Below are positions 10,443 through 28,367 of a stretch of 64,000 nt of DNA, piece after piece. The translations under genes were made by a program, and so were the position numbers. Within the stretch, counting starts at the first letter, position 1. Every line of letters starts with the position of its first letter. Origin of the DNA: Chloroflexota bacterium (GTDB lineage Bacteria; Chloroflexota; Dehalococcoidia; Tepidiformales; Tepidiformaceae); the NCBI GenBank assembly GCA_026702615.1, contig JAPPBY010000033.1, positions 1 through 64,000 on the forward strand, read 5' to 3'. The notes under the pieces are model-generated. The model saw only the letters and a program-made list of their open reading frames with translations, was not told the DNA's origin and did not search any database.

Positions 10443-11772
10443 CTACTCCCGCTGGCCGGATGCTGCTTCGTCCTTCGACTGGCGGGGCCGGGCGATCATT
10501 CGTATCTCGTCGGAACCGGCGACCCAGTTGTTCGCGCCCCGGCGCACGTAGGGCAGGATTCCCCCCGCGGTGGAGACCCCGTACGGGCACCGATCTCCGG
10601 GCGCAACGCGCATCGCGATGACGGTCCGCCGTTCAAGCGTGTGGGTGCTCAGCTCATACTCGGGAGGTGGGCTGACTTTGCTGCGGACGATGTTGTCGAG
10701 CCTGTCGCGTGCCTTGCCCGCGTCGCCCGTTATCCCGACGATGCCCCCGGTGTCGTCGATGCCGATGATGATGGTGCCGCCGCTCCCATTCGAGAACGCG
10801 GCCACGGCCCTGGCGATGCGTTCGCTGTCCGGGACCGCCTCCTTGAACTCGACCGTCTCGCTCTCACCCCCCAGTCGCATCCGGTCGAGTCGCTCGTCGA
10901 GGTCGTCGGGTTCGTAGACGACGCCGCCCTGCTGGAACGACAGGGGCCAGCTGCTGCTGATCGCGCGGAAGTCGAGGCACTCCTGGCCGCGCGTCAGCGC
11001 CACCCACGTATCGGAGCGGTCGGCGCCGCTGACCGGCACGCGGACGTCTCCTGGCTCAACCACATGCTCCTCGTGTCCTTCCCCCGCCGAGGACACCTGA
11101 AGCTGCACCCCGTCGACATCTTCGCCAAGCACCGGGACGACCAGTGCGGTCGGCGACACCGCGACCGTCCCGAGGTACGCTCCGGCGTGGGCGATCCTGA
11201 CCAGCATCAGCTCGGAAGGGATGGTCCGGCCCGGCGGGCATCGAGTGCTCGCCGAAGAGCACTGACGCGGAGGCGACATTCACGTCCGGGAAGAACGGCA
11301 GGCCGGCCCCGGCGAGCACGGCGCCGGGCATCGGCGTTTCGATCCTGCCCTGTGGGATGACCTCGTACTCGGTGTGCGGGGTGGTGAAGCGTGTACCGTA
11401 GCGGGCGTGCGTGAAGCTCTCCGAGTGGAACCACGAGCAATTCGGGCTGGGTTCAGGCAGGGAGAACGTTAGGCCGTGAACCTCGCCGCTCTTCCGTGTG
11501 AGCCAGTCGGCGAGGTCGTCGCCGTCGACGACGGCCTTGATGAAGAGGACCTCGCCGTAGTCGTACGTGCGTTCCTCGAGGCCGGAGAGGTCGTCGCCCG
11601 CGTTGACGACGCCAGTGACCACCAAGAGCCCTTCGGCAGTCCGACGGATCAGGAGCCGTACATCAATCGGGCCGAAGGAGCGCAGCCTGCTCCCGAGCTC
11701 ATCTGTCGTCGCTTGGCCTTGCTTGATCATCCTCACCCTCACGGACACCTGGTCACCCGGAGATGGAATCAT
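10443..11772 (-). pseudogene. AlbA_2 (Schlafen-type) domain protein, interrupted by a +1 frameshift
   Basis: Two overlapping frames join into one protein of about 442 residues if one base is removed from the C-run at 11230-11232 on the plus strand. The reading then runs GEHSMPAG into RTIPSELMLVRIAH without a break. The N-terminal ~240 residues are of unknown fold. The C-terminal part has TVEFKEAVPD, then AFSNGSGGTIIIGIDDTGG and IVGITG, the hallmark of the AlbA_2 domain found in Schlafen-like and transcription-factor proteins, which binds nucleic acid. The shift falls in a short homopolymer, so a sequencing error is as likely as a real mutation. The gene lies in the defence island, downstream of the DUF6236-like gene on the same strand. 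Confidence 0.7.
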
Positions 11773-13419: not shown

Positions 13420-16400
13420 GTGACTTTCTTTGAGCAAACATCGCGCCGCCTGAACCTGCGAGGGGAGGGCGAACTCACGTGGCGCAAGCCGCAACTGGGT
13501 GCGATAGGTGCGCTGCTCCAGTCATTCTCCCTCGATGATGAAGAGCCACCACTAATCTCGATTCCGACGGGTACAGGAAAGACTGCGGTCGCGATGATCG
13601 CTCCTCTTCTTTTGTCGCCATCGCCCAGGCGCGTGTTGATTGTTGAACCCTCGGTTGAGTTGCGGCATCAGATAGCGGATGAGGTCGAAGGACAGGGCGT
13701 GCTGAGAGCGCTCGGGTGCATACCGACAGATGCAGACAGACCTTCCGTGTTGGAACTGAAGGGACGCGTGAAGCGTTGGAGCGACGTTGCTGATGCCGAC
13801 TTCGTCGTGGCGCACCCCAAGTCGATCAGCCCGCTCCACTACGAGGCATCACCGCCGCCCACTGATCTCTTCGACCTCGTGATCGTGGACGAAGCCCACC
13901 ACCTCGGCGCACCGACGTGGCAAGCGATTCTCGATTACTTCAAGGGAGCCCGAGCAATCCTCCTGACGGCAACGCCGTTCCGGCGTGACAAGAAGAGGAT
14001 TCCCGGCCGGATCGCATATCACTACCCGTTGCGCAACGCGATATCGGAGGGAATCTACAACCCAGTGCTGCCCGACCTTCTGCCAGTCAAGACCGGCGAA
14101 GCGAGAGCATCAGTCGACGCACGCATCGCTGCGCGCGCCGCCGAGCGCTTGACCAGCACTGAACACGAGACCAGCACGATGCTCATTCGGGGTAGTACCG
14201 TCGAGCGAGCCAACGAACTCGCAGAGCTTTATCTGGATTCTGGAATCCGCGCTGAGGTCCTCCACAGTCGCCTTGGCGAGAAGCGAAGAGCCGGGATCAT
14301 TGAGCGCATCCGTTCTGGTGAAACTCGCGCTGTCGCCGTTGTCGGGATGCTCGGCGAGGGATTCGACCTTCCCCGACTGCGCATCGCCGCCTATCACGAC
14401 AAGCACCGTTCGACTCAATCAACCATCCAACTGATCGGACGGCTTGCGCGTACGCATCCAGGCTTCCCGCAGCAGTCAGTTCTTGTGACGGCACAGGATG
14501 CGGACGTATACCCGGAACTACGTGATGTTGTCCGGAGGCTGTATGCGGAGGATGCCGACTGGGCAAGAGTCTTGCCTGGGTTGATCGATGATGAGGTTGC
14601 TCGGAGGGAAGCCGATCAGGCGTATGTCGACCGGTTCACCGAGTCGCGAGGAGCAATCGACCCGACGCTGCTGACACCGCTGAACCGTGGCGCGATTTTC
14701 GAGATGTCGCCTGAGTGGATGCCTGACTTCCAAGCCCATGGAATAGAGACAGGGCAGGTCATCGGCGGGGCCACCGTGATCTACGCCGGAGTCAATGAGG
14801 ACAACACCACGCTGGTCGTGTCCACGAGGACGAATGCGCAGCCACGCTGGTCTAAGGATGCCGGGCTCCAGAATGTCGATTACGGGCTAACGGTCATCAG
14901 CTACCGCTCGCCCCCTCAGGTCGGGATGGCGACGCTGCTGGTGGAGAACTCCGACTCGCCAAGGGTCCTAGCGCGACTCAGGGAGCGTCTGGGCATCGAC
15001 GAGTTCGCCAGCCAGATCGATCCAGAAGTTGTCTCTCAGTATCTGGATGGCCTCGAGCGCACGTCGATCTCATCGGTAGGTCTCAGAGCGGAGGCGAGTT
15101 ACCGCAACCTGATGGGTCGGAACGTCGCTGCCCGTCTGCGGGCCTCGGACATGGCCCAGGCAGGTCTTGGTCACGTGATGCTGCAGACGTCAGGCGAGGA
15201 TGGTCGCTCGATCACGGTCGGTGGCGCGACGGGGAAGGGCAAGGTCTGGACCACTCAGTACACGTCACTTCGAGTGCACGACGAGTGGGTGGACGATGTA
15301 ACGAATCGGATGTGGTTTGCGCGTGTTGGACCGTCCGGGCCGATTCTTCCAGGCGTGAGCCGCGGCACTCGACTCGTGGCGTGGCCCAACTCTCCGATCG
15401 TTTCGGTCGACTTCGCACCAGAGCTTCACTCGGGCGGATGGAGCTTTCACACAAATGGTGATGACCTGAACCTCGAGGATGTGGCCCTGGGGCTCGTCAC
15501 GAATGAGTGGCGACCGCCAGCTCCCGACGCCCCCGTGGAGATCCAAGCGTCGCTGAGCGGCGATGAGGAGAGCCCATTCTGGCGGGGAACGCTGCACATC
15601 AGCGGAGAAGTGCGGACTCTGAGCGGCACCGAGGTTCAAGTGCGGCGGGGATACCCGGATGAAGGGAGGGTGGACGAATTCCTACGGGCGAACCCACCCA
15701 GCATCCACTTCCTTGATGGGCGGCGCGTAGAGGGCCATGTCGTCTACGACAGCCGTGCGCGTCCAAGCGCGGAATCGCTCACGATCCTCCGGGACGAGGA
15801 ATGGGGAGGGATCGATATCAGCGCCGAGACCCGTACCACAGCACTGAGGCGCAACCGCGGAATGCGGTCGGTCCACGAGGCGGTCGAGCGCATGATTCTT
15901 GGCTCGCCGAAGCGGGGGCGGCGGCGATGGGTGATGTGCAACGATGGCAAAGGCGAACTGGCAGACTACGTGGTCGTCGAGGACCTGGGGCGGGGCGGCG
16001 TTGGGCTGGAGTTCTGGCACGCCAAAGCTGCTGGCGGTGAACCGGGCGTGCGTATCACAGATCTGCAAGTGGTGACGGCTCAGGCCCTAAGGAGCCGCAG
16101 GTTCCTTCCCAGGAGGCAACTCTGGGGGAAGCTTCACAAGAGACTCGACGGAAACGAGTTCCCTCACTTGGCCTTGGTCGAGGGGAGCGACCCCGAGTGT
16201 TTTCTGCGTGCCCGCCTTGGCTTCGACCACAGTCGGCATCCGGGTGGCTGGCGCCACTCATGGAGGGTACTTCAGCCCAAACCGGAGGCGAAGATCGTGA
16301 TGGTTCAACCAGGGCTGAGCAAGCAAGGGATCATTGATCAGGCTGCCAGCACCAGCTCGCCTTCGAACAGAGCGAATGACGCCCTCAGCCTCCTCGACGT

Positions 16401-16458
16401 GTTCCAGGACTTCGCGGTAGCCGAAGGGTGGACTGCTGAGGTCGTCTGCTCGCTGTGA
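13420..16458 (+). CDS. Superfamily 2 helicase with nuclease-like C-terminus
   Basis: The protein has 1012 residues from a GTG start. The helicase core has Walker A IPTGTGKT (48-55), DEAHH (157-161), LLTATPF (motif III region) and IGRLART (motif VI), so it is a complete SF2 DEAD/DEAH helicase of the type III-restriction/UvrB-like group. The middle region (about 400-780) has no motif I know. The C-terminal region has a run of acidic residues followed by EFWHAKAA, an E-x-K-like arrangement reminiscent of PD-(D/E)xK nucleases fused to helicases in defence loci. It stands alone on its strand, surrounded by defence genes. Unwinding and cutting of foreign DNA is an inference. Confidence 0.8.
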   Translation: MTFFEQTSRRLNLRGEGELTWRKPQLGAIGALLQSFSLDDEEPPLISIPTGTGKTAVAMIAPLLLSPSPRRVLIVEPSVELRHQIADEVEGQGVLRALGCIPTDADRPSVLELKGRVKRWSDVADADFVVAHPKSISPLHYEASPPPTDLFDLVIVDEAHHLGAPTWQAILDYFKGARAILLTATPFRRDKKRIPGRIAYHYPLRNAISEGIYNPVLPDLLPVKTGEARASVDARIAARAAERLTSTEHETSTMLIRGSTVERANELAELYLDSGIRAEVLHSRLGEKRRAGIIERIRSGETRAVAVVGMLGEGFDLPRLRIAAYHDKHRSTQSTIQLIGRLARTHPGFPQQSVLVTAQDADVYPELRDVVRRLYAEDADWARVLPGLIDDEVARREADQAYVDRFTESRGAIDPTLLTPLNRGAIFEMSPEWMPDFQAHGIETGQVIGGATVIYAGVNEDNTTLVVSTRTNAQPRWSKDAGLQNVDYGLTVISYRSPPQVGMATLLVENSDSPRVLARLRERLGIDEFASQIDPEVVSQYLDGLERTSISSVGLRAEASYRNLMGRNVAARLRASDMAQAGLGHVMLQTSGEDGRSITVGGATGKGKVWTTQYTSLRVHDEWVDDVTNRMWFARVGPSGPILPGVSRGTRLVAWPNSPIVSVDFAPELHSGGWSFHTNGDDLNLEDVALGLVTNEWRPPAPDAPVEIQASLSGDEESPFWRGTLHISGEVRTLSGTEVQVRRGYPDEGRVDEFLRANPPSIHFLDGRRVEGHVVYDSRARPSAESLTILRDEEWGGIDISAETRTTALRRNRGMRSVHEAVERMILGSPKRGRRRWVMCNDGKGELADYVVVEDLGRGGVGLEFWHAKAAGGEPGVRITDLQVVTAQALRSRRFLPRRQLWGKLHKRLDGNEFPHLALVEGSDPECFLRARLGFDHSRHPGGWRHSWRVLQPKPEAKIVMVQPGLSKQGIIDQAASTSSPSNRANDALSLLDVFQDFAVAEGWTAEVVCSL

Positions 16459-16978: not shown

Positions 16979-17281
16979 ATGACGACGGACTCCCGGCCAC
17001 TCGCCATGCTCATCGAGGGCGACAACGCGCAGCCGTCCCTGCTCGCGCACGTGCTGGCCGAGGCGGCCAGGTACGGGACGGTGACGACGCGCCGCATCTA
17101 CGGCGATTGGACGACTCCGCAGATGTCGAGCTGGAAGGAGTCGCTTCACTCCCTCGCCGTGCAGCCGCAACAGCACTCGCGCGCCCCTGGAGGGAGGCGC
17201 CTGGGTAGCAAGGGTGCGACCGTAGGCCGAGGCGACTCGTTGCACCCCTCCAGCTTGTCTGCGGCTTTCGGGGCGGTGTAG
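16979..17281 (+). pseudogene. NYN-domain protein, truncated after about 65 residues
   Basis: The first ~64 residues, including LAMLIEGDNAQPS and WTTPQMSSWKESLHSLAV, are the start of a LabA/NYN PIN-like nuclease. The family normally continues for another 100 or more residues that include further acidic catalytic positions. Here the match stops abruptly after VQPQQ near 17170 and the frame continues into low-complexity Arg/Gly/Ser sequence. The gene is best read as cut by a deletion or rearrangement. It retains its own promoter-like TACACT. A short functional product cannot be excluded, but it would lack much of the active site. Confidence 0.65.
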
Positions 17282-17338
17282 GCCCCTTGTATCGCGGCGC
17301 TCGGCTCGCCGGCGACTCCCGAGGACGGAAGATGGTGG

Positions 17339-17713
17339 GTGGCTAGGCTCAACGTCTTCGTCAGCTTCGAGTTCGACAAGGACGAGAACCTCAGGGGGAG
17401 CTTCTACGCACAAGCGAAGCGCCAGACGCGGCATCGCATACGGGACTACTCGCTCAGTGAGGCCTACAAGGCCCCGGAGTGGAAGGCGAAGGCGAAGGCC
17501 GCCATTCGCCGGTGTGATGCCGTGGTCGTCCTCATCGGCGAGGACACGCACAATGCTCCCGGGGTCAGGACGGAAGTGGACATCGCTCAGAGCCTCGGCA
17601 AGCCGATTCTCCAGGTAAGGCCGCAGAGGCGGAGCTACCCCGGCCTGCATTGGCTCGACGACCCCATCCCTTGGAAGTGGGAGCGCATCGAGGACTGGCT
17701 GGACGAGCTATGA
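17339..17713 (+). CDS. TIR-like (MTH538/DUF1863-type) protein
   Basis: The protein has 124 residues, starting at GTG 17339. NVFVSFEFDKDENLR (5-19) is the first strand and loop of a TIR-like fold. RRCDAVVVLIGEDT (57-70) is the central strand, and GVRTEVDIAQSLGKP (75-89) carries Glu79 at the place of the catalytic glutamate of NADase TIR domains. The length equals one domain. The stop overlaps the start of the next gene by 4 bp, so the two are translated together. It probably makes or cleaves an NAD-derived product when triggered; which of the two cannot be decided from sequence. Confidence 0.78.
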   Translation: MARLNVFVSFEFDKDENLRGSFYAQAKRQTRHRIRDYSLSEAYKAPEWKAKAKAAIRRCDAVVVLIGEDTHNAPGVRTEVDIAQSLGKPILQVRPQRRSYPGLHWLDDPIPWKWERIEDWLDEL

Positions 17714-18126
17714 ACCGGGAAGCGGCACGCGTTGAGCACCTTAAGCTGATTCAGGGGGTCGTGGACCGGCTGAGCCGGAACTCCTTCGCCGTCAAGTCGG
17801 TGGCGACGGCGGCGACGGCGGCGCTGGTGGCGTTCACGGCCGGCACCGAGTCACCCGTGGCTGCCCTTGCCGGTGTGACGGTACTCCCCTTGTGGGTGCT
17901 CGATGCCCTCTTCCTCGATCGCGAGCGTGGCTTTCGCCGGCTCTACGACAGTGTGCGGCAGTGCGAGCCCGTAGAGCACGGGCACAGCGCCTACTTCAAG
18001 ATGGAGGTTCCCTCAGCAGGACACCGCTACAGCCTCCTGAGAGCTGCCGCAAGCGCGAGCCTGTCCCTGTTCTACGCCTCTCTCCTCGCGCTGGTTGGGG
18101 CATCGGCACTCGTCACGCTGGTCTAG
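17710..18126 (+). CDS. Small membrane protein paired with the TIR-like gene
   Basis: The protein has 138 residues and starts by ATGA overlap with the TIR-like gene. The N-terminal helix VEHLKLIQGVVDRLSRNSFA (8-27) is a recurrent signature of small proteins that accompany TIR-like genes. Hydrophobic segments follow at about 28-45, 48-68 and 112-136, with a basic/acidic loop RERGFRRLYD between. It probably has three or four membrane helices. By analogy with other two-gene defence units it may be the membrane-disrupting effector activated by the TIR product. That is an inference; no family number is claimed. Confidence 0.7.
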   Translation: MNREAARVEHLKLIQGVVDRLSRNSFAVKSVATAATAALVAFTAGTESPVAALAGVTVLPLWVLDALFLDRERGFRRLYDSVRQCEPVEHGHSAYFKMEVPSAGHRYSLLRAAASASLSLFYASLLALVGASALVTLV

Positions 18127-18149
18127 AGCCCCGGCACGCCGGGGTGCAC

Positions 18150-18713
18150 CTAGCGTATCCCCAGGAGCCGCGAGAGCCAGCTCCGGCCCGCGGCCTCGCG
18201 ACGGGCCCTCCGGCGCTCTTCGGCCTCCCCGACGGCGTCCTCGACCCAGCCCTCGATGTTGTTGGCAATGCGACGGTAGGCGCGCTGGCTGTCCTTCGCT
18301 CGGGGATCGTGGACCTTCACATGGTCCGAGAGTCGTACACCGTCCACCTCGACATCGAACGGATTCCTGCCCTTGCGGGACTGCTTCCCGTCCCTGTCCA
18401 GCAGGTTGTGGATGTAGATGCCGACCAGCCCCTTGCCCTCGACCCAGGCCTGCTCGATCTCGTACCGGACCCACTCGCGGTCGGCCGTCTCGCTGCCGAC
18501 CAGCACGACGACGCACGAGCCACGGGCGATTCGCGCGTCGATCCACGCGCTGATGGCAGCCTTCCCGCGGCGCTTGACCTCCTCCCAGGCGTTGGCGCTG
18601 ACCGGCTTGCTTCCCTGGATCGCGCCGATGTTGCGCACCTGTGATGTGCGCCAGTTGTCGCGGTCGTAGTGGAAGCTGAAGAAGACCCGTCGCCGGGGAG
18701 TCTTGGCTGGCAT
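18150..18713 (-). CDS. ThsB-like TIR-domain protein, last gene of the Ubl operon
   Basis: The protein has 187 residues. RRRVFFSFHYDRDNWR (7-22), VSANAWEEV (38-46) and SCVVVLVGSETADREWVRYE (66-85) match the TIR-like proteins of the ThsB group; Glu85 in RYEIEQAW is the expected catalytic glutamate. GLVGIYIHNLLDRDG follows, also typical. The C-terminal ~35 residues are a charged helix. The ATG lies 6 bp after the DUF6527 stop, with a good Shine-Dalgarno overlapping that stop (GGAGG), so it belongs to the same transcript as the multiubiquitin and E1 genes. ThsB enzymes convert NAD to a cyclic ADP-ribose-type signal; here the product and receiver are unknown. Confidence 0.85.
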   Translation of the reverse strand: MPAKTPRRRVFFSFHYDRDNWRTSQVRNIGAIQGSKPVSANAWEEVKRRGKAAISAWIDARIARGSCVVVLVGSETADREWVRYEIEQAWVEGKGLVGIYIHNLLDRDGKQSRKGRNPFDVEVDGVRLSDHVKVHDPRAKDSQRAYRRIANNIEGWVEDAVGEAEERRRARREAAGRSWLSRLLGIR

Positions 18714-18719
18714 GCTCCT

Positions 18720-19076
18720 TTACCTCCAGGGGATTCGGAGTCGGCACTGAGCGACCCGCCGCCAGAGAGGCAAGCGCCGCGCAGGCTTGGCCTCCGCGAA
18801 GGAAGGCAACCAGATCACCTTGTTGCGCCGGATGTAGTAGTGCGACTGGCACTCGAAACTCCTGTTGCCTACCGATGGGCAGAGGGAGATCGACTCACCG
18901 TCAAAGGTCATGCTCCAGTCGTTTCGGCTGAGCGGTGTGACGACCTCGCGGCCGCATCCGCAGCAACAGCTGTGCAGGGCCGTCGTGAAGGCGACGGAGA
19001 CGTACAGCACCCCATCGGCAAGGTGTTCCGGGATGTGATGGACGAACTCGTGATCGAGCGCCGTCCTACGGCTCAT
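18720..19076 (-). CDS. DUF6527 protein (Cys-rich, bacterial ubiquitin-like cassettes)
   Basis: The protein has 118 residues. The ATG at 19076 overlaps the stop of the E1 gene (ATGA). Features: DHEFVHHIPEHLADGVLYVS, then the Cys cluster HSCCCGCG (36-42), SLCPSVGN (65-71) and CQSHYYIRRNKVIW (76-89). This spacing is that of DUF6527, a putative metal-binding protein found beside bacterial E1/ThiF and ubiquitin-like genes. The C-terminal 20 residues are basic. It may be a zinc-binding partner or protease of the conjugation system; the biochemical role is not established. Confidence 0.82.
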   Translation of the reverse strand: MSRRTALDHEFVHHIPEHLADGVLYVSVAFTTALHSCCCGCGREVVTPLSRNDWSMTFDGESISLCPSVGNRSFECQSHYYIRRNKVIWLPSFAEAKPARRLPLWRRVAQCRLRIPWR

Positions 19077-20245
19077 GGCTGGCGCTCGTTGACCAGGTGG
19101 TTGCCGTCGATCTGGTAGCAACTGGAGTGCTCCCCGCCCAGATCCAGGTAGAAATCCATGAGCTTCTTCCACTTGACGACGGCGAGGGCGGCGTTCAGAG
19201 CGTTGAGGTCTGCAATCTGGATGTTCTGCGCATAGTCGTCGTCCGCGGGTCGGTCCGCGAGTGGGATCGTCGAGTGAACGTGGTCGTGGTCGCCCGGCGT
19301 CACAGACGTCACTCGCAACTGTCCGAGCAAAGCCCCGTCAACCTCGTTGACACCCATCCCTACATCGACGAACGGCACACCGGCGTCGAGCAGCGTCTCG
19401 ACAGCCAGTAGCCTGGCAGCAGCGTCATCCACGGCGACGAAGGCGAAGTCCATCGAGGACAGGACGTCAGCCGCGCCGCGTTCGAGGTAGTCATGGCTGA
19501 CGATGTTGCGATGCATGTTGGAATAGATGTCGCGGAAGTAGTCGGACTTCCTGGGTCGTGCTCTGAGGTCGTCAACCGACGGCGCGCCGGGAGCCCGGAA
19601 GGCGTTGTGCTGGCCGAAGGTGTCGCCGTCGAACAGGTGGATCGCACCGACCGGCGTCTTCGCTACGAGATCGAGGATGTACGAGCCGGTGCCGCCGAGC
19701 CCAACGATTGCCACCGCGCTGAGCCGGAGCTTCTCCGTGATCGCGCCGATCTCGGCCCTGCTCGAGGCCGTATCAACGTACTCGAACACCGAGCTTGTGT
19801 TCTCCTCGGGGGCTACCAGGAACGTTCGAGCGGTGGCCGCGGGGTCGATCGCCTGCGCGTAGCCGGACAGGATCTCCGCGTACGTCGACATCTTCTCGTA
19901 GTAGTCCGCGTAGCCACCTTCCGGCTTGCTCGAGAACTTGTGCTGAGCGATCAGGCCGTCGCCCAAGTCCCACGAACCGGCAGAGTTGATGATGTTGCTG
20001 AGAGGCGTCCCCTCGCTGTTGCAGGGTGCGCTCCCGGTGAACATCACGACATGATTGCTCGGGCGGGCGGCGACATCCCCTGCGAGGTCAAGTTCCGAGA
20101 CCAGCGAAGCGCGCGCGACGACGCGATCCTCGGTGACGTATGGGACTTGCTTCAGTAGGAGGTAGCCCCCGCGCACCTCGATCTCATAGCCCTCGTCCGC
20201 GAGCCGCTGGAGATCGGGGCTACGACCTATCAGTTGCGGTGGCAT
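19073..20245 (-). CDS. E1-like ThiF adenylyltransferase with N-terminal DUF6791-type domain
   Basis: The protein has 390 residues. The N-terminal ~160 residues include HVVMFTGSAPC and GSWDLGDGLIAQHKFSSKP, matching the domain that precedes ThiF in multiubiquitin operons (DUF6791). The ThiF domain starts at about 170: VAIVGLGGTGSYI (178-190) is the nucleotide-binding loop, and LFDGDTFGQHNAFR (204-217) supplies the acidic and Arg/Asn residues used to adenylate a ubiquitin-like C-terminus. A Cys near the end (HSSCYQ) could carry the thioester. It should activate the Ubl encoded just upstream. The genes overlap at both ends (26 bp with the Ubl gene, 4 bp with DUF6527). No separate E2 gene is present. 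Confidence 0.9.
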   Translation of the reverse strand: MPPQLIGRSPDLQRLADEGYEIEVRGGYLLLKQVPYVTEDRVVARASLVSELDLAGDVAARPSNHVVMFTGSAPCNSEGTPLSNIINSAGSWDLGDGLIAQHKFSSKPEGGYADYYEKMSTYAEILSGYAQAIDPAATARTFLVAPEENTSSVFEYVDTASSRAEIGAITEKLRLSAVAIVGLGGTGSYILDLVAKTPVGAIHLFDGDTFGQHNAFRAPGAPSVDDLRARPRKSDYFRDIYSNMHRNIVSHDYLERGAADVLSSMDFAFVAVDDAAARLLAVETLLDAGVPFVDVGMGVNEVDGALLGQLRVTSVTPGDHDHVHSTIPLADRPADDDYAQNIQIADLNALNAALAVVKWKKLMDFYLDLGGEHSSCYQIDGNHLVNERQP

Positions 20246-20528
20246 TGAAGACGGTGCCGTCCTTGACCTTCACTTCACCGCCGGGGCGGAGGCTGCCATC
20301 GGGCGGGCGGCCGGCGCCGTCGCGGTAGGTGACGGTGAACTCCCAGTTCGGACCCGAGGGCACCGGGCTGAGGGCGAGCTCGAGCACCTCCTTGAAGGAG
20401 ATCTCCTCGGACATGACGATCCGCTCGCGGCCGTTCACGATGATGGCTATTCTGTCCTTGTCGTCGGACCCGTCCTTGTCGTCGAGCTTGTCCTTGTCGT
20501 CAGGCACGGGGCCCTCCTCTTGAACCAT
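20220..20528 (-). CDS. Multiubiquitin-domain (Ubl) protein
   Basis: The protein has 102 residues from the ATG at 20528. A charged Asp/Lys-rich leader (about 9-25) precedes one ubiquitin-like beta-grasp domain: RIAIIVNGRERIV, then EEISFKEVLELAL, and NWEFTVTYRDG to the C-terminal strand. This is the pattern of the multiubiquitin family, here with a single copy. The tail ends TATDRS, not Gly-Gly, so any conjugation chemistry would use a different terminus or need trimming. It is the first gene of the operon and faces the HTH regulator gene across a 107-bp divergent promoter region. Confidence 0.82.
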   Translation of the reverse strand: MVQEEGPVPDDKDKLDDKDGSDDKDRIAIIVNGRERIVMSEEISFKEVLELALSPVPSGPNWEFTVTYRDGAGRPPDGSLRPGGEVKVKDGTVFNATATDRS

Positions 20529-20540
20529 ACTTTGAGATGT

Positions 20541-20614
20541 GTACCGTCTCCGGTACAGGACCACGCTAGCGCACGGCCCTCGCTTGTGTCAAACTGCGGT
20601 GGTGCGGCGTACCG
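20541..20614. promoter_or_regulatory. Palindromic operator and promoter between the Ubl operon and the HTH gene
   Basis: A perfect 16-bp dyad, GTACCGTCTCCGGTAC, spans 20541-20556. The half-site GTACCG recurs at 20609-20614. On the minus strand TTGACA (about 20588-20593) followed after 18 bp by TAGCGT gives a promoter for the Ubl operon, with the dyad just downstream of the expected transcription start. Binding by the neighbouring XRE protein would repress both directions. The sites are seen directly; the binding protein is inferred from position. Confidence 0.55.
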
Positions 20615-20635
20615 TTTTACGCACAGGGAGCGTGC

Positions 20636-21106
20636 GTGGCTGACGGCAGCCTCGATCTCAGCGAATTGGGTCGGCTCTTCGCGGCGGAGCGAAGTCGCCG
20701 CGGGATGAGCCTTCGCGAAGCCTCCGATGACGTCGGGATTCCATTCAACACCCTTGCCCGGGTTGAGAAGGGGCACGTCCCGGACCTGCCGAAGTTCAAG
20801 CGGCTCGTCGAGTGGTGCGGAGCCGACATGGCCCAGTTCTTCGAGCCGCAGGCGAAGGCCACGGTCACGACCGACGTGATAGCGGAGCATCTTCACTCGG
20901 ATCGCAGTCTTTCGCCCGAGGCGGCGGACCGCATCGCGGCGATCGTGAACGAGCTCTACGAAGCCCTGGCACGCCCGGAGAGGGTATCCGCGGTGCACCT
21001 GAGGGCAGCGAAGACGTTCAGGCCCGACGCGGCCCACGCCCTCGGGGAACTAGTCGACGATCTGCACCAGGCGCTCTTGAGAGAGTCGCGAGATGGCCCT
21101 TCGTAG
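20636..21106 (+). CDS. XRE-family HTH regulator, CapH-like
   Basis: The protein has 156 residues, starting at GTG 20636 with AGGGAG upstream. The HTH is SELGRLFAAERSRRGMSLRE followed by DVGIPFNTLARVEKG (about 9-46), a standard XRE fold. The rest is helical. The stop region overlaps the ImmA/IrrE gene by 14 bp. HTH plus metallopeptidase pairs such as CapH/CapP control CBASS defence operons, where the peptidase destroys the repressor after DNA damage. The same logic is likely here for the divergent ubiquitin-like operon; this is an inference from arrangement. Confidence 0.85.
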   Translation: MADGSLDLSELGRLFAAERSRRGMSLREASDDVGIPFNTLARVEKGHVPDLPKFKRLVEWCGADMAQFFEPQAKATVTTDVIAEHLHSDRSLSPEAADRIAAIVNELYEALARPERVSAVHLRAAKTFRPDAAHALGELVDDLHQALLRESRDGPS

Positions 21107-21671
21107 GGGCTTCAAGTCGGAAGCGGAGAGGATTGCAGCGCGCCTGAGAGAAGACCTCGGGGTGGGGGCGGCGCAGTCGGTCACGCCCGACAACCTAGCG
21201 GAACTCCTGGGTGTCGAGATCCGATCAGGGGATGACCTGATTCCGCGTAGTCGATTCGTTGCTCTCGACGAACTGCAACCCGATGCCTTCTCAGCCTGTA
21301 CCTTCCGCCCTTCACCCGATCGCGTGGTGATCGTGTTCAACCCCCTGTCCGCGCCATCGCGCCGAACGAGCGACCTCGCGCACGAATTCGCCCACATCCT
21401 GCTCGACCACGACTTGAGCCGAATCGAGACGCTCGGCGACATCACCTTCCTCTCCTGTGATCCGATTCAGGAGGAAGAGGCAGCGTGGCTCTCCGGGTGT
21501 CTCATCCTTCCTCGGCCGCTTCTCCTAGCAGCGGTCCGCCGAGGGGCGACCGCGAGCGATATCGCGAAGCGCCACGGTGTCAGCGAAACTATGGCGCGGT
21601 ACCGCCTGAACGTCACCGGGGTGGCGAGGCAACACGCGGCACGCAGGAAGGGAAGGGCCTCCGCAGGGTAG
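21093..21671 (+). CDS. ImmA/IrrE-family metallopeptidase, CapP-like
   Basis: The protein has 192 residues. The zinc site HEFAHILLDH carries His97, Glu98 and His101, and a second acidic patch QEEEAAWLSGCLILP (about 127-141) supplies the third ligand region typical of ImmA/IrrE. The C-terminal helix segment DIAKRHGVSETMARYRLN resembles an HTH and is common in this family. It overlaps the XRE gene, so the pair is one unit. Expected role: cleave the XRE repressor when triggered and so release the Ubl-E1-DUF6527-TIR operon. Confidence 0.88.
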   Translation: MALRRGFKSEAERIAARLREDLGVGAAQSVTPDNLAELLGVEIRSGDDLIPRSRFVALDELQPDAFSACTFRPSPDRVVIVFNPLSAPSRRTSDLAHEFAHILLDHDLSRIETLGDITFLSCDPIQEEEAAWLSGCLILPRPLLLAAVRRGATASDIAKRHGVSETMARYRLNVTGVARQHAARRKGRASAG

Positions 21672-21902
21672 GTGGCACACCCTACGCGCGGGCCGGCACG
21701 TGTGGAGTACAGGCGAGCCGGGAATCTACAGGTGCTGCGCACCCACGTCATGCGGCTGCACCGCAGGCTGGGCGGCGTCGCCCAGCCGCGCCCACAACAT
21801 CCTCATGAAGTATTGCGTTGGCTGCCGCATGGCGGAGGGCGAGGCGGCCCCGGCCGCTGTCGAGGCGGTACGATAGGAGGGGTCGCGCCGGGAGGATCAG
21901 CC

Positions 21903-22175
21903 ATGACCACGACTGTAAAGGCCACGTACGCCAACGGCGTGTTCACGCCTCAAGAACCCGTCGACCTCGAGGAGGGCGCGGAGGTCATGGTCTCGATGGA
22001 CGGCACGCCGCCTGAGTCGTCGGGGACGATGGAGGAAGATGGAGCCTCCATCCTGCACCTCATCGAGGAGCTGCACGCGTCCGCGCTCGTCGGCGAGCCG
22101 GATGACCGGCCCGCTGACCTCGCCGAGCACTACAAGCACTACCTGTATGGCCACCCCAAGGACGAAGCTTCGTGA
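21903..22175 (+). CDS. AF2212-like (DUF104) antitoxin
   Basis: The protein has 90 residues with a strong GGAGGATCAGCC before the ATG. The N-terminal strand-rich part TVKATYANGVFTPQEPVDLE is diagnostic of AF2212/DUF104 antitoxins, which bind and block PIN toxins. The C-terminal half is helical and acidic and would wrap the toxin. A TACGAT at 21869-21874 is a likely -10 element. The stop overlaps the toxin start (GTGA), as expected for a toxin-antitoxin operon. Confidence 0.85.
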   Translation: MTTTVKATYANGVFTPQEPVDLEEGAEVMVSMDGTPPESSGTMEEDGASILHLIEELHASALVGEPDDRPADLAEHYKHYLYGHPKDEAS

Positions 22176-22591
22176 GCGAGGTCTTCGCCGACACCGGGTA
22201 CTGGGCCGCGCTGCAGGACAGTCGGGACAGGCTGCACGAGAGGGCACTTGCTCTGACACGCGGGCTTGAATCTCGCCGCATCGTGACGACCCAGATGGTG
22301 CTGGCCGAGGTACTCAACATGTTCGGGAGCCGAGGGGAACGGCAGCGGCGCCTGGCCGGCGAGGTTGTCGAGCGAGCGGAGCGCAGTCTCGATGTCGAGA
22401 TCGTGCCGCAGACGGACGCGCAGTTCCGCGCAGCCTTGGAGCGCTACACCGAGCGGCCGGACCAGACGTGGAGTCTCACGGATTGCGCCAGCTTCATCAT
22501 CATGGAGGAGCGCGGCATCACCGATGCCCTCGCCCACGACCGCGACTTCGAGCAGGCTGGCTTTACCGCCCTGCTCCGGCAAGGCGATTGA
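22172..22591 (+). CDS. PIN-domain toxin (VapC-like RNase)
   Basis: The protein has 139 residues with a GTG start overlapping the antitoxin stop. The PIN active-site residues are in place: Asp7 in FADTGY, Glu46 in VLAEVLN, Asp104 in SLTDCASF and Asp123/Asp125 in AHDRDF. The expected activity is Mg-dependent cleavage of RNA, often tRNA or rRNA, held in check by the upstream protein. It lies between the ImmA/IrrE gene and thyX in the island. Confidence 0.9.
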   Translation: MSEVFADTGYWAALQDSRDRLHERALALTRGLESRRIVTTQMVLAEVLNMFGSRGERQRRLAGEVVERAERSLDVEIVPQTDAQFRAALERYTERPDQTWSLTDCASFIIMEERGITDALAHDRDFEQAGFTALLRQGD

Positions 22592-22936
22592 ATACACTCC
22601 ACGCGGATCGACCCAACCCGAACCGGACGGTTCGGACCGCGCGACATCGGGGGTCGGGCTACATCTTTCCATCCCCGGGCTGCCAGCTTGACACTCGTGC
22701 CGTTCCGTAACGGGCGGCCCGAGGATGCTCACGAACTACTGGACGAAGCCCGGGGAATCGGCAACTCGCTCGTCCCGACGACCCCCCGCATCTCCCCGGC
22801 AGGGGTGGAAGCGTGACCGCGGTGGGGCGGGGCCTCGCAGCGGTGTAACTCGCTCACGGGTAGCGGGCCTGGCCGCAGGCCAGCCCATCGACGAGGTGTA
22901 GGATACGGCGGTGGTTCGAACCCCGAACCGCGATGC
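22592..22936. other. Intergenic stretch with a hairpin and a mini-ORF before thyX
   Basis: A 6-bp GC hairpin (GGCCTG at 22866-22871, CAGGCC at 22876-22881, GCCG loop) lies about 70 bp before thyX. TAGGAT at 22899-22904 lies 6 nt before a GTG at 22911. That GTG opens a 9-codon frame whose TGA (22938-22940) overlaps the GTG start of thyX. The small dyad GGTTCGAACCCCGAACC makes this look like a tRNA T-arm, but no tRNA body is present. Confidence 0.35.
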
Positions 22937-23944: not shown

Positions 23945-25318
23945 ATGTCCGTTCAAGCCGCTGACGCGCAGACGGTTCTTCTCGATCTCCAAGAAGCGGG
24001 GAGCCGGATCAGCCGAGACGACGAGGAGATCGTCGTCAGCTTTCGTGATCCCTGTGGGTCGATTGGCCGTCGTGACTTCTCAACGCACTGGATCCATTGG
24101 TACCCAGCAAAGATGTTCCACAGAATACCGTCGGTCTTCTTGGACAACGTCGACTTGGCAGAACATGCCATGGTCTTGGACCCCTTCTGCGGATCGGGCA
24201 CGGTTCTCCTGGAGGCGAGTCTTCGAGGACACACGGCCATCGGGATAGATATCAGCCCACTCGCGCAGCTCATTAGTCGTACGAAGGTCACGCCCATCGA
24301 CCCTCGTTTGCTCGAAGATGAGCTTGCCGAGCTCCTGCCGAAGGCCAAGCGGTCCCGCTTGAAGCCAAGACCGCATCCCATCCTGGACTCGTGGCTGCCC
24401 GCACCGTCCCGTGCTGGCCTTCATCGCATCAAGGCAGCGATCTCGGGACTCGCTGATGCCCGTTCGAGGGAGTTCTTCCTTGTGGCACTGACTAGCATTG
24501 TGCGTCGCGTGTCCGCAGCCGATCCCACGATTCCACCGCTTGTGCGGCTCAGCGAGCATCGGGCGACTTCGGCTGGGGCTAGGTATCGAGCTGCCCTCGA
24601 ACGCTCCCAATCAGTCACCACTTCATCTGTTTATGCAGCGTTCGAGGACGCGGCGACCGCAAATATCCGGAGGATGTCAGAGTTGTTCGCCGTAAGGCGT
24701 CGCCTCGGAAGGTCCTGGGTGGCCGGCTCGGGCGCTCACGCAGCCCAGACGAACCTGCAGTCGGACTCGGTCGATGCGATCATCACCTCGCCACCCTACT
24801 GTGGAGCGCAAAAGTATGTGCGGAGCATGAAGCTCGAACTCATCCTCTCCGGCTTTCCGTCGTCGGAACTGCGCGCTCTCGACCGTCTCACGCTTGGGAC
24901 CGAAGCAGTTCCCACCGGCAATCCTCAAATCGATCCCCTGATCACAGGTGACGACTACGTCGATGATCTGGTTCACAAGATATACGCCGTGAACCCCGTC
25001 CGCGCCCGGATGGCATCCGACTACTCCAAGTACCTCGCCTTGTTTGCCGAGGAGAGCAAGCGGCTGTTGCGGCCAGGTGGTCACCTTCTTGTTACTCTGG
25101 GGCGAAGCACGCTCGCTGGAGTCCCGTTCCCGGCAGATCGGATTCTCCACCGTGCCGGTCGAGCAGCCGGCCTCCAGTCCGTCGCGACCTTGGTTGATCG
25201 CATCCCTAGCCGAGGGCTCCTAACCGAGCGTCATGCAACAGCCGGGCGCATCGACCATGAGTTCATTGCCTGGCTTCGTCGGCCCGGGGAAGCACCTTCT
25301 GATGGAGCGTCGATATGA
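23945..25318 (+). CDS. DNA methyltransferase (N6-adenine/N4-cytosine type)
   Basis: The protein has 457 residues. Motif I DPFCGSGTVLLEA begins at Asp79, and motif IV TSPPY spans 281-285, in the order motif I then IV. TSPPY points to N4-cytosine or N6-adenine amino-methylation. HWIHWYPAKMFHRIP (48-62) precedes motif I as in many of these enzymes. No restriction endonuclease lies beside it. It is the first gene of a tight operon whose stop overlaps the next start by ATGA. It may mark self DNA for the ATPase and PRTase modules downstream; that link is an inference. Confidence 0.9.
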   Translation: MSVQAADAQTVLLDLQEAGSRISRDDEEIVVSFRDPCGSIGRRDFSTHWIHWYPAKMFHRIPSVFLDNVDLAEHAMVLDPFCGSGTVLLEASLRGHTAIGIDISPLAQLISRTKVTPIDPRLLEDELAELLPKAKRSRLKPRPHPILDSWLPAPSRAGLHRIKAAISGLADARSREFFLVALTSIVRRVSAADPTIPPLVRLSEHRATSAGARYRAALERSQSVTTSSVYAAFEDAATANIRRMSELFAVRRRLGRSWVAGSGAHAAQTNLQSDSVDAIITSPPYCGAQKYVRSMKLELILSGFPSSELRALDRLTLGTEAVPTGNPQIDPLITGDDYVDDLVHKIYAVNPVRARMASDYSKYLALFAEESKRLLRPGGHLLVTLGRSTLAGVPFPADRILHRAGRAAGLQSVATLVDRIPSRGLLTERHATAGRIDHEFIAWLRRPGEAPSDGASI

Positions 25319-26274
25319 TGGCGTTAACGAGCAGAGAGACGTTGTACGCGAAGGTCAAGAATCTGAATGAACTCTTGTGGGGGGACCACGTGACCCTTCC
25401 GACATTAGAGTCGTGGTTGGACAACTTTTCGGGCGGCCATCTGTCGCAAGAAATTGAGCACCGACACGCTCTTTACCTCCTGTCGAAGTTCCTGTACTTC
25501 GGACAGACCGAGGTTCGCGAACTCTTGCGCGCGATGTTCCGCGACCTCATTCGAGGTCCCCTTTCTGTCCATGCCCGAGCAGCCCTGAAGGATCGCGATG
25601 ACTTCGGCGCAGTACACGCAGGGTTTCTCAGGGAACTCGACCGAACGCGCTTCCTTGGTCTTGGTACGCCAGCCGAGAGCGGGCCGCACATCCTCTACGA
25701 CTTCCGACTCGCAAACGACCTTCCCACAAGGGCGTTTTCCAGCCCGGCCGACCTGGTTACAGGTCCTCTCAACGATCAAGGGACCAAGTGGAGGTCTCCA
25801 GCGGTGCGGCGCCTCGTCTTCGTCGACGACTTCTGTGGAACAGGGAATCAGGCTACGGCTTTGGGTCGAGAAGCCGTACGCCCGATGCGGGAGGCTGCAA
25901 CCCGCAGCGGCGTCTCGCTCGAGGTGTGGTACCTGACGCTGTTCGCCACCACGACGGGGCTTTCCAACTTGGCGGGCGCGAAGGTCTTCGACCACGTGGC
26001 TACAGTCTCAGAGCTTGACGAGACATACCGGGTCTTCGAGGCCGACTCGCAACTCTATGGCGAACCCGGCAGCGACCTCCAAAAGGACGATGGAGAGGCA
26101 ATAGCTCGTCACTACGGGAAGCGGCTGCAGCCGACTGGCCCTCTCGGCTACGGCGACAGCCAGCTCTTGCTAGGCTTTCACCATAACGTCCCCGACAACA
26201 CGTTGCCGATATTCTGGGCGGAGCAGTCTCAACCGCCGTGGCGAGCATTGTTCCCGCGGATATCCAAACAGTGA
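25315..26274 (+). CDS. PRTase-CE (phosphoribosyltransferase-like conflict protein)
   Basis: The protein has 319 residues. RRLVFVDDFCGTGNQAT (165-181) is the PRPP-binding loop of type I phosphoribosyltransferases (hydrophobic strand, Asp-Asp, Thr-Gly). The flanking regions match the PRTase-CE family associated with bacterial conflict ATPases. The N-terminal ~120 residues are helical. It may use PRPP or another nucleotide to modify a target. The start is the ATG of the ATGA overlap with the methyltransferase; ATG 25318 is an alternative. The next gene begins about 20 bp after its stop. Confidence 0.75.
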   Translation: MMALTSRETLYAKVKNLNELLWGDHVTLPTLESWLDNFSGGHLSQEIEHRHALYLLSKFLYFGQTEVRELLRAMFRDLIRGPLSVHARAALKDRDDFGAVHAGFLRELDRTRFLGLGTPAESGPHILYDFRLANDLPTRAFSSPADLVTGPLNDQGTKWRSPAVRRLVFVDDFCGTGNQATALGREAVRPMREAATRSGVSLEVWYLTLFATTTGLSNLAGAKVFDHVATVSELDETYRVFEADSQLYGEPGSDLQKDDGEAIARHYGKRLQPTGPLGYGDSQLLLGFHHNVPDNTLPIFWAEQSQPPWRALFPRISKQ

Positions 26275-26293
26275 GCCGAGACATCGACTGGCG

Positions 26294-28354
26294 GTGATGG
26301 ACATGCAGGCGACTCGGCGCTTAGCGCCCGGCAACCCATTCGAAGTCACTAAGGCCGTTGACTTCACCGACAAAGAGATAGCTGCCACGTGGGTCGACTG
26401 GCCGGCACCAGGGGGATTCGCGGACTTCATCAACGTACGGTCTCCCCTCGCCCGCTTCGTCCTCGGGGGCAAAGGGACCGGCCGCACGCACATAATGCGC
26501 CACTTCTCAGCACCAGTGCAGGCAATTCGGCGCCCAAACGATCCCATCGGTCAAGTCAGGGACGAAGGCGTCTTGGGAATCTATGTCCTCTGTAGTGGCC
26601 TCAACTCACTGCGCTTCCAGGGTCGGGGCCAGGATTCGACCACCTGGCAGGCTGTCTTCGCCCAGTACATGGACGTCTGGCTCGCCCAAGCCGCTCTCGG
26701 CGCGTTCGCGACCGTTATGGGCAACAGGTTGGTCGACCGGGTGACAGAACAGAACATCGTCGCTGACATTATGCGCCTCTTCTACGACGCTCCCCAAGAC
26801 CGATTGCCTACCACCATATCGGAGCTCACTGACCACCTTGTGTCTCTGACTAGAGAAATTGACTTGGCAGTTAATAGGGCTGTTCTCAATCGTGACCAGA
26901 ACCTGGATCTCACACTGTGGTCCACGCCCGGTTCGCTTGTGTTCGGAATACCAGCCGCTATCAAGGAGAACTTCAGTGAACTCGAGGACGTAACGTTTCT
27001 TTACTTGATTGACGAATTCGAAAATTTTGAAGAAGAGCAGCAGAAGTACGTTAATACTCTAGTTAGAGAAAAGCGAACCGGAACTGCCTTCATTGTTGGG
27101 GTACGTACATATGGTCTTCGGACTCATCAGGTCTTGGGGGTCGGAGAAGAGAACAAACGCGGGTCTGAGGTTGAGGAGATCTTCCTTGACCGCAAGTACA
27201 CGGGGCGGAATTGGAGCCAGTATCGTGAGTTCTGCAGGGAGGTCATAGCTCGTCGAGTTGCGGAACAGCACCTCGAAGCCGACAAGGATAAGCAGACTCC
27301 TATCGAGGACTTATTTGAGGTGCTGACGCCAGACCATGTTGAGCAGATGGTCCGCGAGCGCTACGAGCCCACGAGACGCCCATATCTCCAGACGCTAGCA
27401 CGACAACTTTCATCGGAACCTGTCACACCCGACGGTGCGCCACTTCCTTCTTCTGCTGTCGAATTCGTCCTGGAAGCCATCCGTGTCCCGCCTCGGCCGC
27501 TCCTCGAGAAGGTGAACGCGTTACAAATCTATCGAGCCTGGGCATCTGGGCGAGACGTCATCGGAGCGGCCCAAGCCATCCGAGACGCAGCGCGAGACGC
27601 CCCTCGTAGCGAAGCGGGGGAGCCGAGCTACTCGCAGAGGAGAGTGCTCTCGCACTACGTCACTGATCTGCGCGCCCAGCTATACGAAGACATGAGGCTG
27701 CGACCACAATACTCAGGACTCACAGACTTCATCACGATGTCGGACGGGCTTACTCGGAACCTCATCATCATCCTCAAGAACACCTATCGCTGGTCGCTGT
27801 TTAACGGGGAGGAGCCGTTCTCTGGTGGCCGTATATCGCTAGAGTCGCAGCAGAGGGGTGTGCGCGAGGCTGCCGATTGGTTCTTCGCCGACGCCCGGCC
27901 TCCGGGCGAGTCCGGTATGCACGTGCAGGACGCGATTCAGCGACTCGGCGACATGTTTCGGCTCTTCCGATTCTCGGATAAGCCCGTGGAGAGTTCGCTC
28001 GCGACTTTCAGTGCCGACTTGACAGCTTGCTCGACTGCCGCTCGTGAAGTCGTACATCTCGCGCAGCAGTGGGCGCTTCTCGTTCGAGCGGATCAAGGAC
28101 AGAAGGACCGCAATACTCGGCTGGTAGAAGGAAAGTTCCACTTGAATCGCATGCTTAGCCCCAAGTGGGACCTTCCGATTGCACGCCGAGGTTCCGTCCG
28201 GTTGAGTTCCGACGAGATGGACGCGATCTTCGATCCAGAGCATTCGGCAGAGTTTTCGAAGGTCATGGATCGCCGGCTATCGAGAATGGACGCCCCATTC
28301 GGCCGACGCCCTGGACGACAAGGGCGACAAGCATTCCTCGCGATCGACGGTTAG
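26294..28354 (+). CDS. ORC/CDC6-like P-loop ATPase of the conflict cassette
   Basis: The protein has 686 residues from GTG 26294 (ATG 26297 or 26303 also possible). Walker A FVLGGKGTGRTHI is at about 55-67; Walker B FLYLIDEFENF is at about 235-245, followed by VREKRTGTAFIVGVRTYG, the sensor region. The fold matches the AAA+ ATPases of the ORC/CDC6 group that accompany PRTase-CE. The C-terminal ~350 residues are helical, without a recognised catalytic motif, and likely sense or hold the partner. Codon use and base composition are markedly more AT-rich than in the flanking core genes, pointing to acquisition by transfer. It probably works as an ATP-driven switch. Confidence 0.75.
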   Translation: MMDMQATRRLAPGNPFEVTKAVDFTDKEIAATWVDWPAPGGFADFINVRSPLARFVLGGKGTGRTHIMRHFSAPVQAIRRPNDPIGQVRDEGVLGIYVLCSGLNSLRFQGRGQDSTTWQAVFAQYMDVWLAQAALGAFATVMGNRLVDRVTEQNIVADIMRLFYDAPQDRLPTTISELTDHLVSLTREIDLAVNRAVLNRDQNLDLTLWSTPGSLVFGIPAAIKENFSELEDVTFLYLIDEFENFEEEQQKYVNTLVREKRTGTAFIVGVRTYGLRTHQVLGVGEENKRGSEVEEIFLDRKYTGRNWSQYREFCREVIARRVAEQHLEADKDKQTPIEDLFEVLTPDHVEQMVRERYEPTRRPYLQTLARQLSSEPVTPDGAPLPSSAVEFVLEAIRVPPRPLLEKVNALQIYRAWASGRDVIGAAQAIRDAARDAPRSEAGEPSYSQRRVLSHYVTDLRAQLYEDMRLRPQYSGLTDFITMSDGLTRNLIIILKNTYRWSLFNGEEPFSGGRISLESQQRGVREAADWFFADARPPGESGMHVQDAIQRLGDMFRLFRFSDKPVESSLATFSADLTACSTAAREVVHLAQQWALLVRADQGQKDRNTRLVEGKFHLNRMLSPKWDLPIARRGSVRLSSDEMDAIFDPEHSAEFSKVMDRRLSRMDAPFGRRPGRQGRQAFLAIDG

Positions 28355-28367
28355 GTCTGGGGCTCTC

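What the first reader, a model, noticed from the sequence alone, without database searches (positions are those of the whole stretch)
18150..20528. Ubiquitin-like conjugation operon fused to a TIR effector
Four genes on one strand, overlapping or within 6 bp: multiubiquitin Ubl, E1/ThiF with a DUF6791-type domain, Cys-rich DUF6527, and a ThsB-like TIR with its catalytic-type Glu85. Known bacterial Ubl systems and TIR systems (Thoeris) are usually separate. Here a conjugation module appears coupled to a TIR enzyme, so Ubl attachment could gate TIR activity, or the TIR could be the conjugation target. No E2 gene and no Gly-Gly tail are present, so the chemistry may be unusual.
Basis: partly seen in the sequence, partly recalled or inferred. 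Interest (0 to 1): 0.9.

Follow-up and report, generated by a model that had tools for sequence, protein, structure and literature searches.

The report
Ubiquitin-like operon carrying a Thoeris-type TIR
In a Chloroflexota (Dehalococcoidia) genome, a widespread bacterial ubiquitin-like operon has gained, as its last gene, the TIR signalling enzyme of a neighbouring TIR-plus-membrane-protein defence system; the join is real but was found in only one genus, so it is a local hybrid of two known kinds of system rather than a new class.

Summary
The four genes are real, at the stated coordinates and on one strand: Ubl (Multi_ubiq), E1 (DUF6791+ThiF), DUF6527 and a ThsB-type TIR. Ubl-E1-DUF6527 is a conserved three-gene operon, in that order in all 39 complete loci fetched besides the window, with a 26-nt Ubl/E1 overlap in 38. 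It is the 'polyUbl' operon type of Iyer et al. 2006, related to 'Bub'; a CapH/CapP-like regulator pair often lies divergently beside it.

The TIR is not part of that conserved unit. It occurs only in the window genome and one congener, within a shared 5.4-kb cassette at different genomic sites. Its relatives pair with a small membrane protein (PADLOC PDC-M50). That partner lies 24 bp away, convergent, and a third species of the genus has the plain operon TIR-TM-TIR without the Ubl genes. So a Thoeris-like TIR was moved into a Ubl operon.

Hints of more than co-location: a 6-bp gap; the same DUF6527-TIR junction in a third, decayed copy; and a ~20-aa C-terminal tail, absent from ThsB relatives, resembling the tail common to DUF6527 proteins. 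Ubl gating of the TIR is untested. The missing Gly-Gly and E2 are family traits.

The parts
20220..20528 (-). Ubl (single multiubiquitin beta-grasp domain, 102 aa, C-terminus ATATDRS)
   Evidence: Pfam Multi_ubiq E 4.4e-16; profile of relatives matches PDB 9cd2 'multi-ubiquitin domain protein' E 2.7e-21; C-terminal Ser in 38/39
19073..20245 (-). E1-like protein: N-terminal DUF6791 domain (aa 10-159) + ThiF adenylation domain (aa 170-343), 390 aa
   Evidence: Pfam; ThiF half superposes on PDB BubCD, Z 25.5, 221 residues, rmsd 2.4; His65, Ser105, Lys118 invariant and Cys75 35/40 in relatives
18720..19076 (-). DUF6527 protein (118 aa), Cys/His-rich, with C-terminal W/R/L-rich tail
   Evidence: Pfam E 5.4e-24; C37, C39, C41, C76, H79 in 41/41 relatives; tail sequences of relatives listed
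18150..18713 (-). ThsB-type TIR (187 aa) with a ~20-aa C-terminal extension GRSWLSRLLGIR; PDC-M50B-like
   Evidence: Pfam ThsB_TIR; PADLOC ThsB 221 bits, PDC-M50B 194 bits; PDB 8wcf E 1.3e-40; Glu85 conserved 10/10
17710..18126 (+). Membrane protein (138 aa, hydrophobic segments), PDC-M50A-like; likely effector partner of the TIR
   Evidence: PADLOC PDC-M50A E 4.5e-25; relatives lie beside P0001-family TIR genes
17339..17713 (+). Second, short TIR-like protein (124 aa), overlapping the membrane-protein gene by 4 bp
   Evidence: Pfam ThsB_TIR E 1e-8
20636..21106 (+). HTH regulator, divergent from Ubl (CapH-like position; weak family match)
   Evidence: Pfam HTH_31 E 2e-7; PADLOC capH only E 0.027; pair recurs beside other Ubl operons
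21093..21671 (+). ImmA/IrrE-type peptidase (CapP-like)
   Evidence: Pfam Peptidase_M78 E 7.5e-17; PADLOC capP E 1.6e-8
21672..22591 (+). Toxin-antitoxin pair (AF2212-like antitoxin, PIN toxin), inside the shared cassette
   Evidence: Pfam E 5e-7 and E 4e-9
17147..22605 (.). Cassette shared with a congeneric MAG (92.7% DNA identity over 5460 bp); immediate flanks differ
   Evidence: blastn of window against L002; flank tests

Best explanation
A mobile defence cassette that joins two known modules. Module 1 is a polyUbl/Bub-like operon (Ubl, DUF6791-ThiF E1, DUF6527). Module 2 is a Thoeris-like TIR + membrane-effector system (PADLOC candidate PDC-M50). One TIR of module 2 has been relocated to the 3' end of the module 1 operon, facing its membrane partner tail to tail. 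Most likely working: DNA damage or phage infection activates the IrrE/CapP-like protease, which removes the CapH-like repressor and raises transcription of Ubl-E1-DUF6527-TIR. The TIR, perhaps with the second TIR-like protein, then makes an NAD-derived signal that opens the membrane protein and stops the infected cell. The ThiF domain adenylates the Ubl tail; DUF6791 (invariant His/Ser) stands where related E1s carry a JAB protease and probably processes or removes the Ubl; DUF6527 is an accessory metal-binding protein. The TIR tail, resembling that of DUF6527, may bring the TIR to the same place. Shown here: gene order, family membership, cassette, co-oriented 6-bp junction, likely relocation, tail likeness. 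Inferred: regulation, signal, effector action, Ubl chemistry, tail function.
For: Triad in all 39 complete fetched loci; all eight plasmid loci inspected show ThiF-DUF6527, seven with an annotated multiubiquitin gene. TIR beside it only in the window and L002; six genomes of the genus lack the E1. PDC-M50A-like relatives lie next to P0001-family TIRs in Halorhabdus, Desulforapulum, Ligilactobacillus, Mycolicibacterium and Sulfitobacter plasmids. G1535, same genus, has the operon TIR-TM-TIR on one strand, each gene overlapping the next, the first TIR 53% identical to P0001, with no Ubl/E1/DUF6527 hit in the 12-kb stretch. TIR and TM share high synonymous divergence between the two cassettes (dS 0.37, 0.29) while E1 and DUF6527 are low (0.11, 0.10); TIR dN/dS 0.23 indicates purifying selection. 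HTH+IrrE divergent from Ubl in L085, L087, L090, L092, L105, L110 and two plasmids; PMC13373217 reports CapW or CapH+CapP at 219 of 544 Bub operons.
Against: No expression, biochemical or phage data. The CapH match is weak (E 0.027). The DUF6791 protease role rests on Iyer et al.'s speculation about the domain replacing JAB and on my recollection of the Ye et al. abstract (paper not readable). The tail likeness was noticed before it was tested, scores only 10 bits, and 24 of 5000 shuffles did as well. TM and TIR are on opposite strands, so they are not one operon here. A Vibrio and a Streptomyces plasmid TM have a TIR neighbour that gave no P0001 match.
Confidence: 0.6

Rival explanations
1. 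Simple co-location: the TIR drifted to the end of the Ubl operon within a defence island; the two modules work independently and merely share a transcript.
For: The Ubl operon normally ends with DUF6527; the adjacency is confined to one genus; TIR and E1 differ strongly in synonymous divergence, so they did not travel strictly together; the window is rich in other defence genes.
Against: 6-bp spacing kept in both genomes and the junction seen again in a decayed third copy; purifying selection on the TIR; DUF6527-like tail on the TIR and not on nine ThsB relatives.
Confidence: 0.3
2. One reading: the Ubl is attached to the TIR (or to its effector) and gates its activity, in the way CBASS Cap2 primes its cyclase.
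For: Operon co-transcription is likely; the TIR shares a C-terminal tail type with DUF6527; Ubl-like conjugation of an enzyme in anti-phage defence is known for CBASS (PMC10097602, title and abstract).
Confidence: 0.15
3. DUF6791 is a fused E2 with Cys75 as its catalytic cysteine, so that the operon is an E1-E2 thioester system.
For: His65 precedes Pro-Cys75 and both are invariant in the first 13 sequences; related operons carry E2 domains N-terminal to the E1.
Against: Cys75 is replaced in 5 of 40 relatives (His x4, Arg x1) while His65 and Ser105 are never replaced; no Pfam E2 match at E 10 for ten members; Iyer et al. describe the domain replacing JAB as unrelated to JAB and likened its possible role to JAB, not to E2. 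A structure comparison of this domain alone could not be run.
Confidence: 0.08

Closest known systems
Iyer, Burroughs & Aravind 2006 operon type 6e (polyUbl operons; PMC1779556)
   Same: Ubl with one to three beta-grasp domains, E1-like protein with an unknown N-terminal domain in place of JAB in a subset, and a Cys/His metal-binding protein.
   Different: No E2/RWD-like gene found here; the DUF6527 pattern is C-x3-C...C-x2-H rather than the published C-x3-C-x35-38-H-x2-C; a TIR gene is appended.
Bub (bacterial ubiquitination-like) operons, Gong et al. 2025 / Ye et al. 2026
   Same: E1 domain is the best PDB match (Citrobacter BubCD); Multi_ubiq protein matches PDB 9cd2; CapH/CapP-type regulators are reported beside Bub operons.
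   Different: N-terminal DUF6791 half did not align to BubCD in these searches; no BubB-like gene identified; extra TIR. The papers themselves could not be read.
Thoeris (ThsA/ThsB)
   Same: The TIR is a ThsB-family protein; relatives on plasmids sit with SIR2-family proteins.
   Different: No ThsA-type effector in the cassette; a small membrane protein instead.
PADLOC candidate PDC-M50 (PDC-M50A + PDC-M50B)
   Same: Both components match and their genes end 24 bp apart.
   Different: On opposite strands, and the TIR belongs to the Ubl operon with an added C-terminal tail.
Type II CBASS (Cap2/Cap3) and Bil
   Same: Ubiquitin-like activation in anti-phage defence; E1 domains distantly related (PADLOC E1-E2 partial matches).
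   Different: No E2 match, no JAB protein, no cyclase among the operon genes scanned.

Membership tests
polyUbl operon type 6e / Bub-like | Protein of one or more multiubiquitin beta-grasp domains | tested here: met
   Multi_ubiq E 4e-16; PDB 9cd2 E 3e-21 by profile
polyUbl operon type 6e / Bub-like | E1-like ThiF domain with an N-terminal partner domain (JAB, or an unrelated domain in a subset) | tested here: met
   ThiF + DUF6791; ThiF half matches BubCD, Z 25.5; PMC1779556 describes the subset. That DUF6791 is that very domain is inference
polyUbl operon type 6e / Bub-like | Metal-binding protein with C-x3-C-x35-38-H-x2-C | tested here: inconclusive
   DUF6527 has C37-x3-C41 then C76-x2-H79 in 41/41: same kind, last pair in reverse order
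polyUbl operon type 6e / Bub-like | E2/RWD-like protein (present in part of the family) | tested here: inconclusive
   Pfam scans gave none; structure of the N-terminal half not searched alone
Bub | Conjugation through oxyester intermediates | not testable with these tools
PDC-M50 | PDC-M50A membrane protein next to a PDC-M50B TIR | tested here: met
   P0006 E 4.5e-25, P0001 E 5.1e-58; genes end 24 bp apart, convergent
Thoeris | ThsB TIR | tested here: met
   PF08937 E 5e-26; ThsB PDLC00433 221 bits
Thoeris | ThsA effector beside ThsB | tested here: not met
   None of the eight genes scanned around the TIR matches ThsA; the SIR2 protein at 4110-7646 is Dsr1-like and 10 kb away
CapH/CapP regulators | HTH repressor + IrrE-type protease divergent from a defence operon | tested here: inconclusive
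   CapP-like E 1.6e-8, CapH only E 0.027; position as expected
Type II CBASS / Bil | E1-E2 (Cap2-type) protein plus JAB peptidase | tested here: not met
   PADLOC E1-E2 models match mainly the ThiF part; no E2 or JAB match among the genes scanned

The most novel reading that the evidence does not exclude
A chimeric immune pathway in which a Thoeris-like TIR has become a working component or client of a bacterial ubiquitin-like machine: it is co-expressed with it, carries a DUF6527-type C-terminal tail that docks it to the same partner, and is switched by Ubl attachment or removal, linking Ubl conjugation to nucleotide second-messenger signalling and a membrane effector.
Probability: 0.2. Interest if true: 0.85.

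Novelty: new variant of a known kind. Interest (0 to 1): 0.45.

Why it matters
According to PMC13373217, Bub operons have not been shown to protect against phage, so their function is open. A natural hybrid in which such an operon carries a gene from a recognisable effector system gives a direct handle: test what the Ubl machinery does to the TIR. The conserved DUF6527 tail and the 26-nt Ubl/E1 overlap are further family-wide features that a laboratory could test.

Tried and rejected
Searching papers for DUF6527 found nothing; the NSMB 2026 and Structure 2025 Bub papers are not held. DUF6791 as an E2: no Pfam E2 match and Cys75 not invariant. DUF6527 fold: AlphaFold model at pLDDT 81 found no significant PDB match (best Foldseek E 1.3; best Z 2.4); this shows neither novelty nor absence. 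Whole-model search of the E1 tested in effect only residues 132-390. E1 relatives in phage records: none; viral contigs gave two clear relatives, neither with a P0001-type TIR. No sigma-70 promoter or terminator pattern in the cassette. RNA structure at the DUF6527-TIR junction is not unusual (z +1.1). An apparent dN/dS above 1 for the Ubl rests on very few synonymous changes and differing N-termini, and was set aside.

Full report
1. The observation. Pfam, PADLOC and NCBIfam give Multi_ubiq, DUF6791+ThiF, DUF6527 and ThsB_TIR with strong scores. The genes overlap by 26 and 4 bases; the TIR follows after 6 bases, and its ribosome site abuts the DUF6527 stop codon (TAA AGGAGC ATG). The window is contig C8 of a 2.87-Mb genome. 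The closest relative of the cassette lies in a Dehalococcoidia MAG (L002), whose E1 re-appears in the class search as G1526, 'same genus'.

2. The conserved unit is three genes, not four. I gathered E1 relatives from genome contigs, from whole-genome searches in Chloroflexota, in the orders of the Myxococcus, Polaromonas, Streptomyces and Pseudotabrizicola hits and in the window's own class, from viral contigs and from plasmids. In all 39 fetched loci that hold the three genes, they come in the order Ubl-E1-DUF6527. In eight plasmid records from four bacterial phyla, ThiF-DUF6527 follows an annotated multiubiquitin gene in seven; in the eighth no Ubl gene is annotated. A start codon for the E1 lies exactly 26 nt before the end of the Ubl gene in 38 of 39 loci, so the Ubl tail and the E1 start are dual-coded; this overlap may itself contribute to the conservation of the T-x-x-S tail. 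Frequency is about 1-3% of genomes in the groups searched.

3. What the operon is. The set fits operon type 6e of Iyer et al. 2006 (PMC1779556): a protein of one to three Ubl domains, an E1-like protein whose N-terminal JAB is replaced in a subset by an unrelated domain, and a metal-binding protein. Its E1 half is closest in the PDB to Citrobacter BubCD (sequence E 9e-11; structure Z 25.5, 221 residues, rmsd 2.4, 19% identity), and the Ubl profile matches PDB 9cd2, a 'multi-ubiquitin domain protein' with the same TDKS end. It is therefore a Bub-like operon, though the Bub papers themselves could not be read. From memory, Ye et al. report oxyester intermediates and a new serine protease family with a Ser-His dyad in Bub operons; in the present family DUF6791 has His65 and Ser105 in 40/40 relatives but Cys75 in only 35/40. 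I read DUF6791 as the likely protease and not as an E2; this is inference. The ThiF half has no conserved cysteine.

4. The TIR. P0001 is a ThsB-family TIR, conserved at Glu85. It is next to DUF6527 only in the window and in L002; six other genomes of the genus lacked the E1. On plasmids, its relatives occur with SIR2-family proteins, other TIRs, a phospholipase or a small membrane protein, not with Ubl genes. In the window, the gene of the membrane protein P0006 (PDC-M50A, E 4.5e-25) ends 24 bp from the end of the TIR gene on the opposite strand. Of the plasmid loci with P0006 relatives, several (Halorhabdus, Desulforapulum, Sulfitobacter, and from the TIR search Ligilactobacillus and Mycolicibacterium) have an adjacent TIR that matches P0001. 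G1535, in the same genus, carries TIR-TM-TIR as one overlapping operon between genes that look by eye like hsdM and hsdS, the first TIR being 53% identical to P0001 and ending without a tail. The simplest history is that the TIR of such a system was placed at the end of the Ubl operon.

5. The cassette. Window 17147-22605 matches L002 7645-13080 at 92.7%, from upstream of the short TIR to just past the PIN toxin. The DNA to the right of it was not found in G1526 apart from a 68-bp match, and the other flank in L002 contains sequence present many times in the window genome. L002 also has a 272-bp fragment, at the very edge of the block, that holds the end of DUF6527 and the start of the TIR, broken by a frameshift; its first 43 TIR codons are 93% identical to the window and 86% to L002's own copy. 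So the DUF6527-TIR junction existed in at least one further copy. Between the two cassettes the TIR and TM have dS 0.37 and 0.29, E1 and DUF6527 0.11 and 0.10, HTH and IrrE 0.25 and 0.22; all genes tested except the Ubl have dN/dS of 0.06-0.23. The modules have thus seen recombination, and the TIR is under purifying selection.

6. The tail. DUF6527 proteins end in a W/R/L-rich stretch that looks amphipathic in most of the 41 sequences printed. The window TIR has about 20 residues more than its relatives and ends GRSWLSRLLGIR, in L002 GRSWLSRLLG. A profile of 40 DUF6527 tails that left out L002 (the window was not among those loci) scores the TIR tail 10.0 bits; 24 of 5000 shuffles reach that; nine ThsB relatives score 0.3 or less and none of 42 E1 tails reaches it. 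I noticed the likeness before testing it, so the figure is a guide only. It is the main hint of functional integration.

7. Regulation and setting. A HTH gene and an ImmA/IrrE-type peptidase gene diverge from the Ubl gene. Similar pairs lie beside the Ubl operon in L085, L087, L090, L092, L105 and L110 and in Pseudomonas aeruginosa and Novosphingobium plasmids, with a WYL-domain protein in Acidiphilium. [quoted passage not shown] The window holds other defence-type genes.

8. Verdict. Observation confirmed. Interpretation partly supported: a real but genus-restricted hybrid of two known kinds of module. Transcriptional coupling is likely; Ubl control of the TIR is possible and testable but not shown. 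Novelty: new variant of a known kind.

Noticed in passing
window 20220-20245 and 38 of 39 related loci: The Ubl and E1 genes overlap by exactly 26 nt across distant phyla, so the Ubl C-terminus and the E1 N-terminus are dual-coded.
   Followed up: partly
DUF6527 C-termini, 41 loci: DUF6527 proteins end in a W/R/L-rich, apparently amphipathic tail of unknown role.
   Followed up: partly
window 4110-7646 (-): SIR2-domain protein of 1178 aa resembling Dsr1.
   Followed up: no
window 23945-29345 (+): DNA methyltransferase, PRTase-CE, ORC-CDC6-like ATPase and CARF-like protein in a row: another likely conflict system.
   Followed up: no
window 10443-11279 (-) and 13420-16458 (+): Schlafen AlbA_2 protein and a large ResIII/DEAD helicase.
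   Followed up: no
L130:3523-8275: In a congener the TIR-TM-TIR operon lies between genes that look like hsdM and hsdS of a type I restriction system.
   Followed up: no
L002:7381-7650: Decayed second DUF6527-TIR junction at the cassette border, with a frameshift, closer to the window copy than to L002's own.
   Followed up: partly
L136:4001-9158: Leptolyngbya plasmid: the Ubl operon is followed, after one unknown gene, by a caspase-family protein gene.
   Followed up: no
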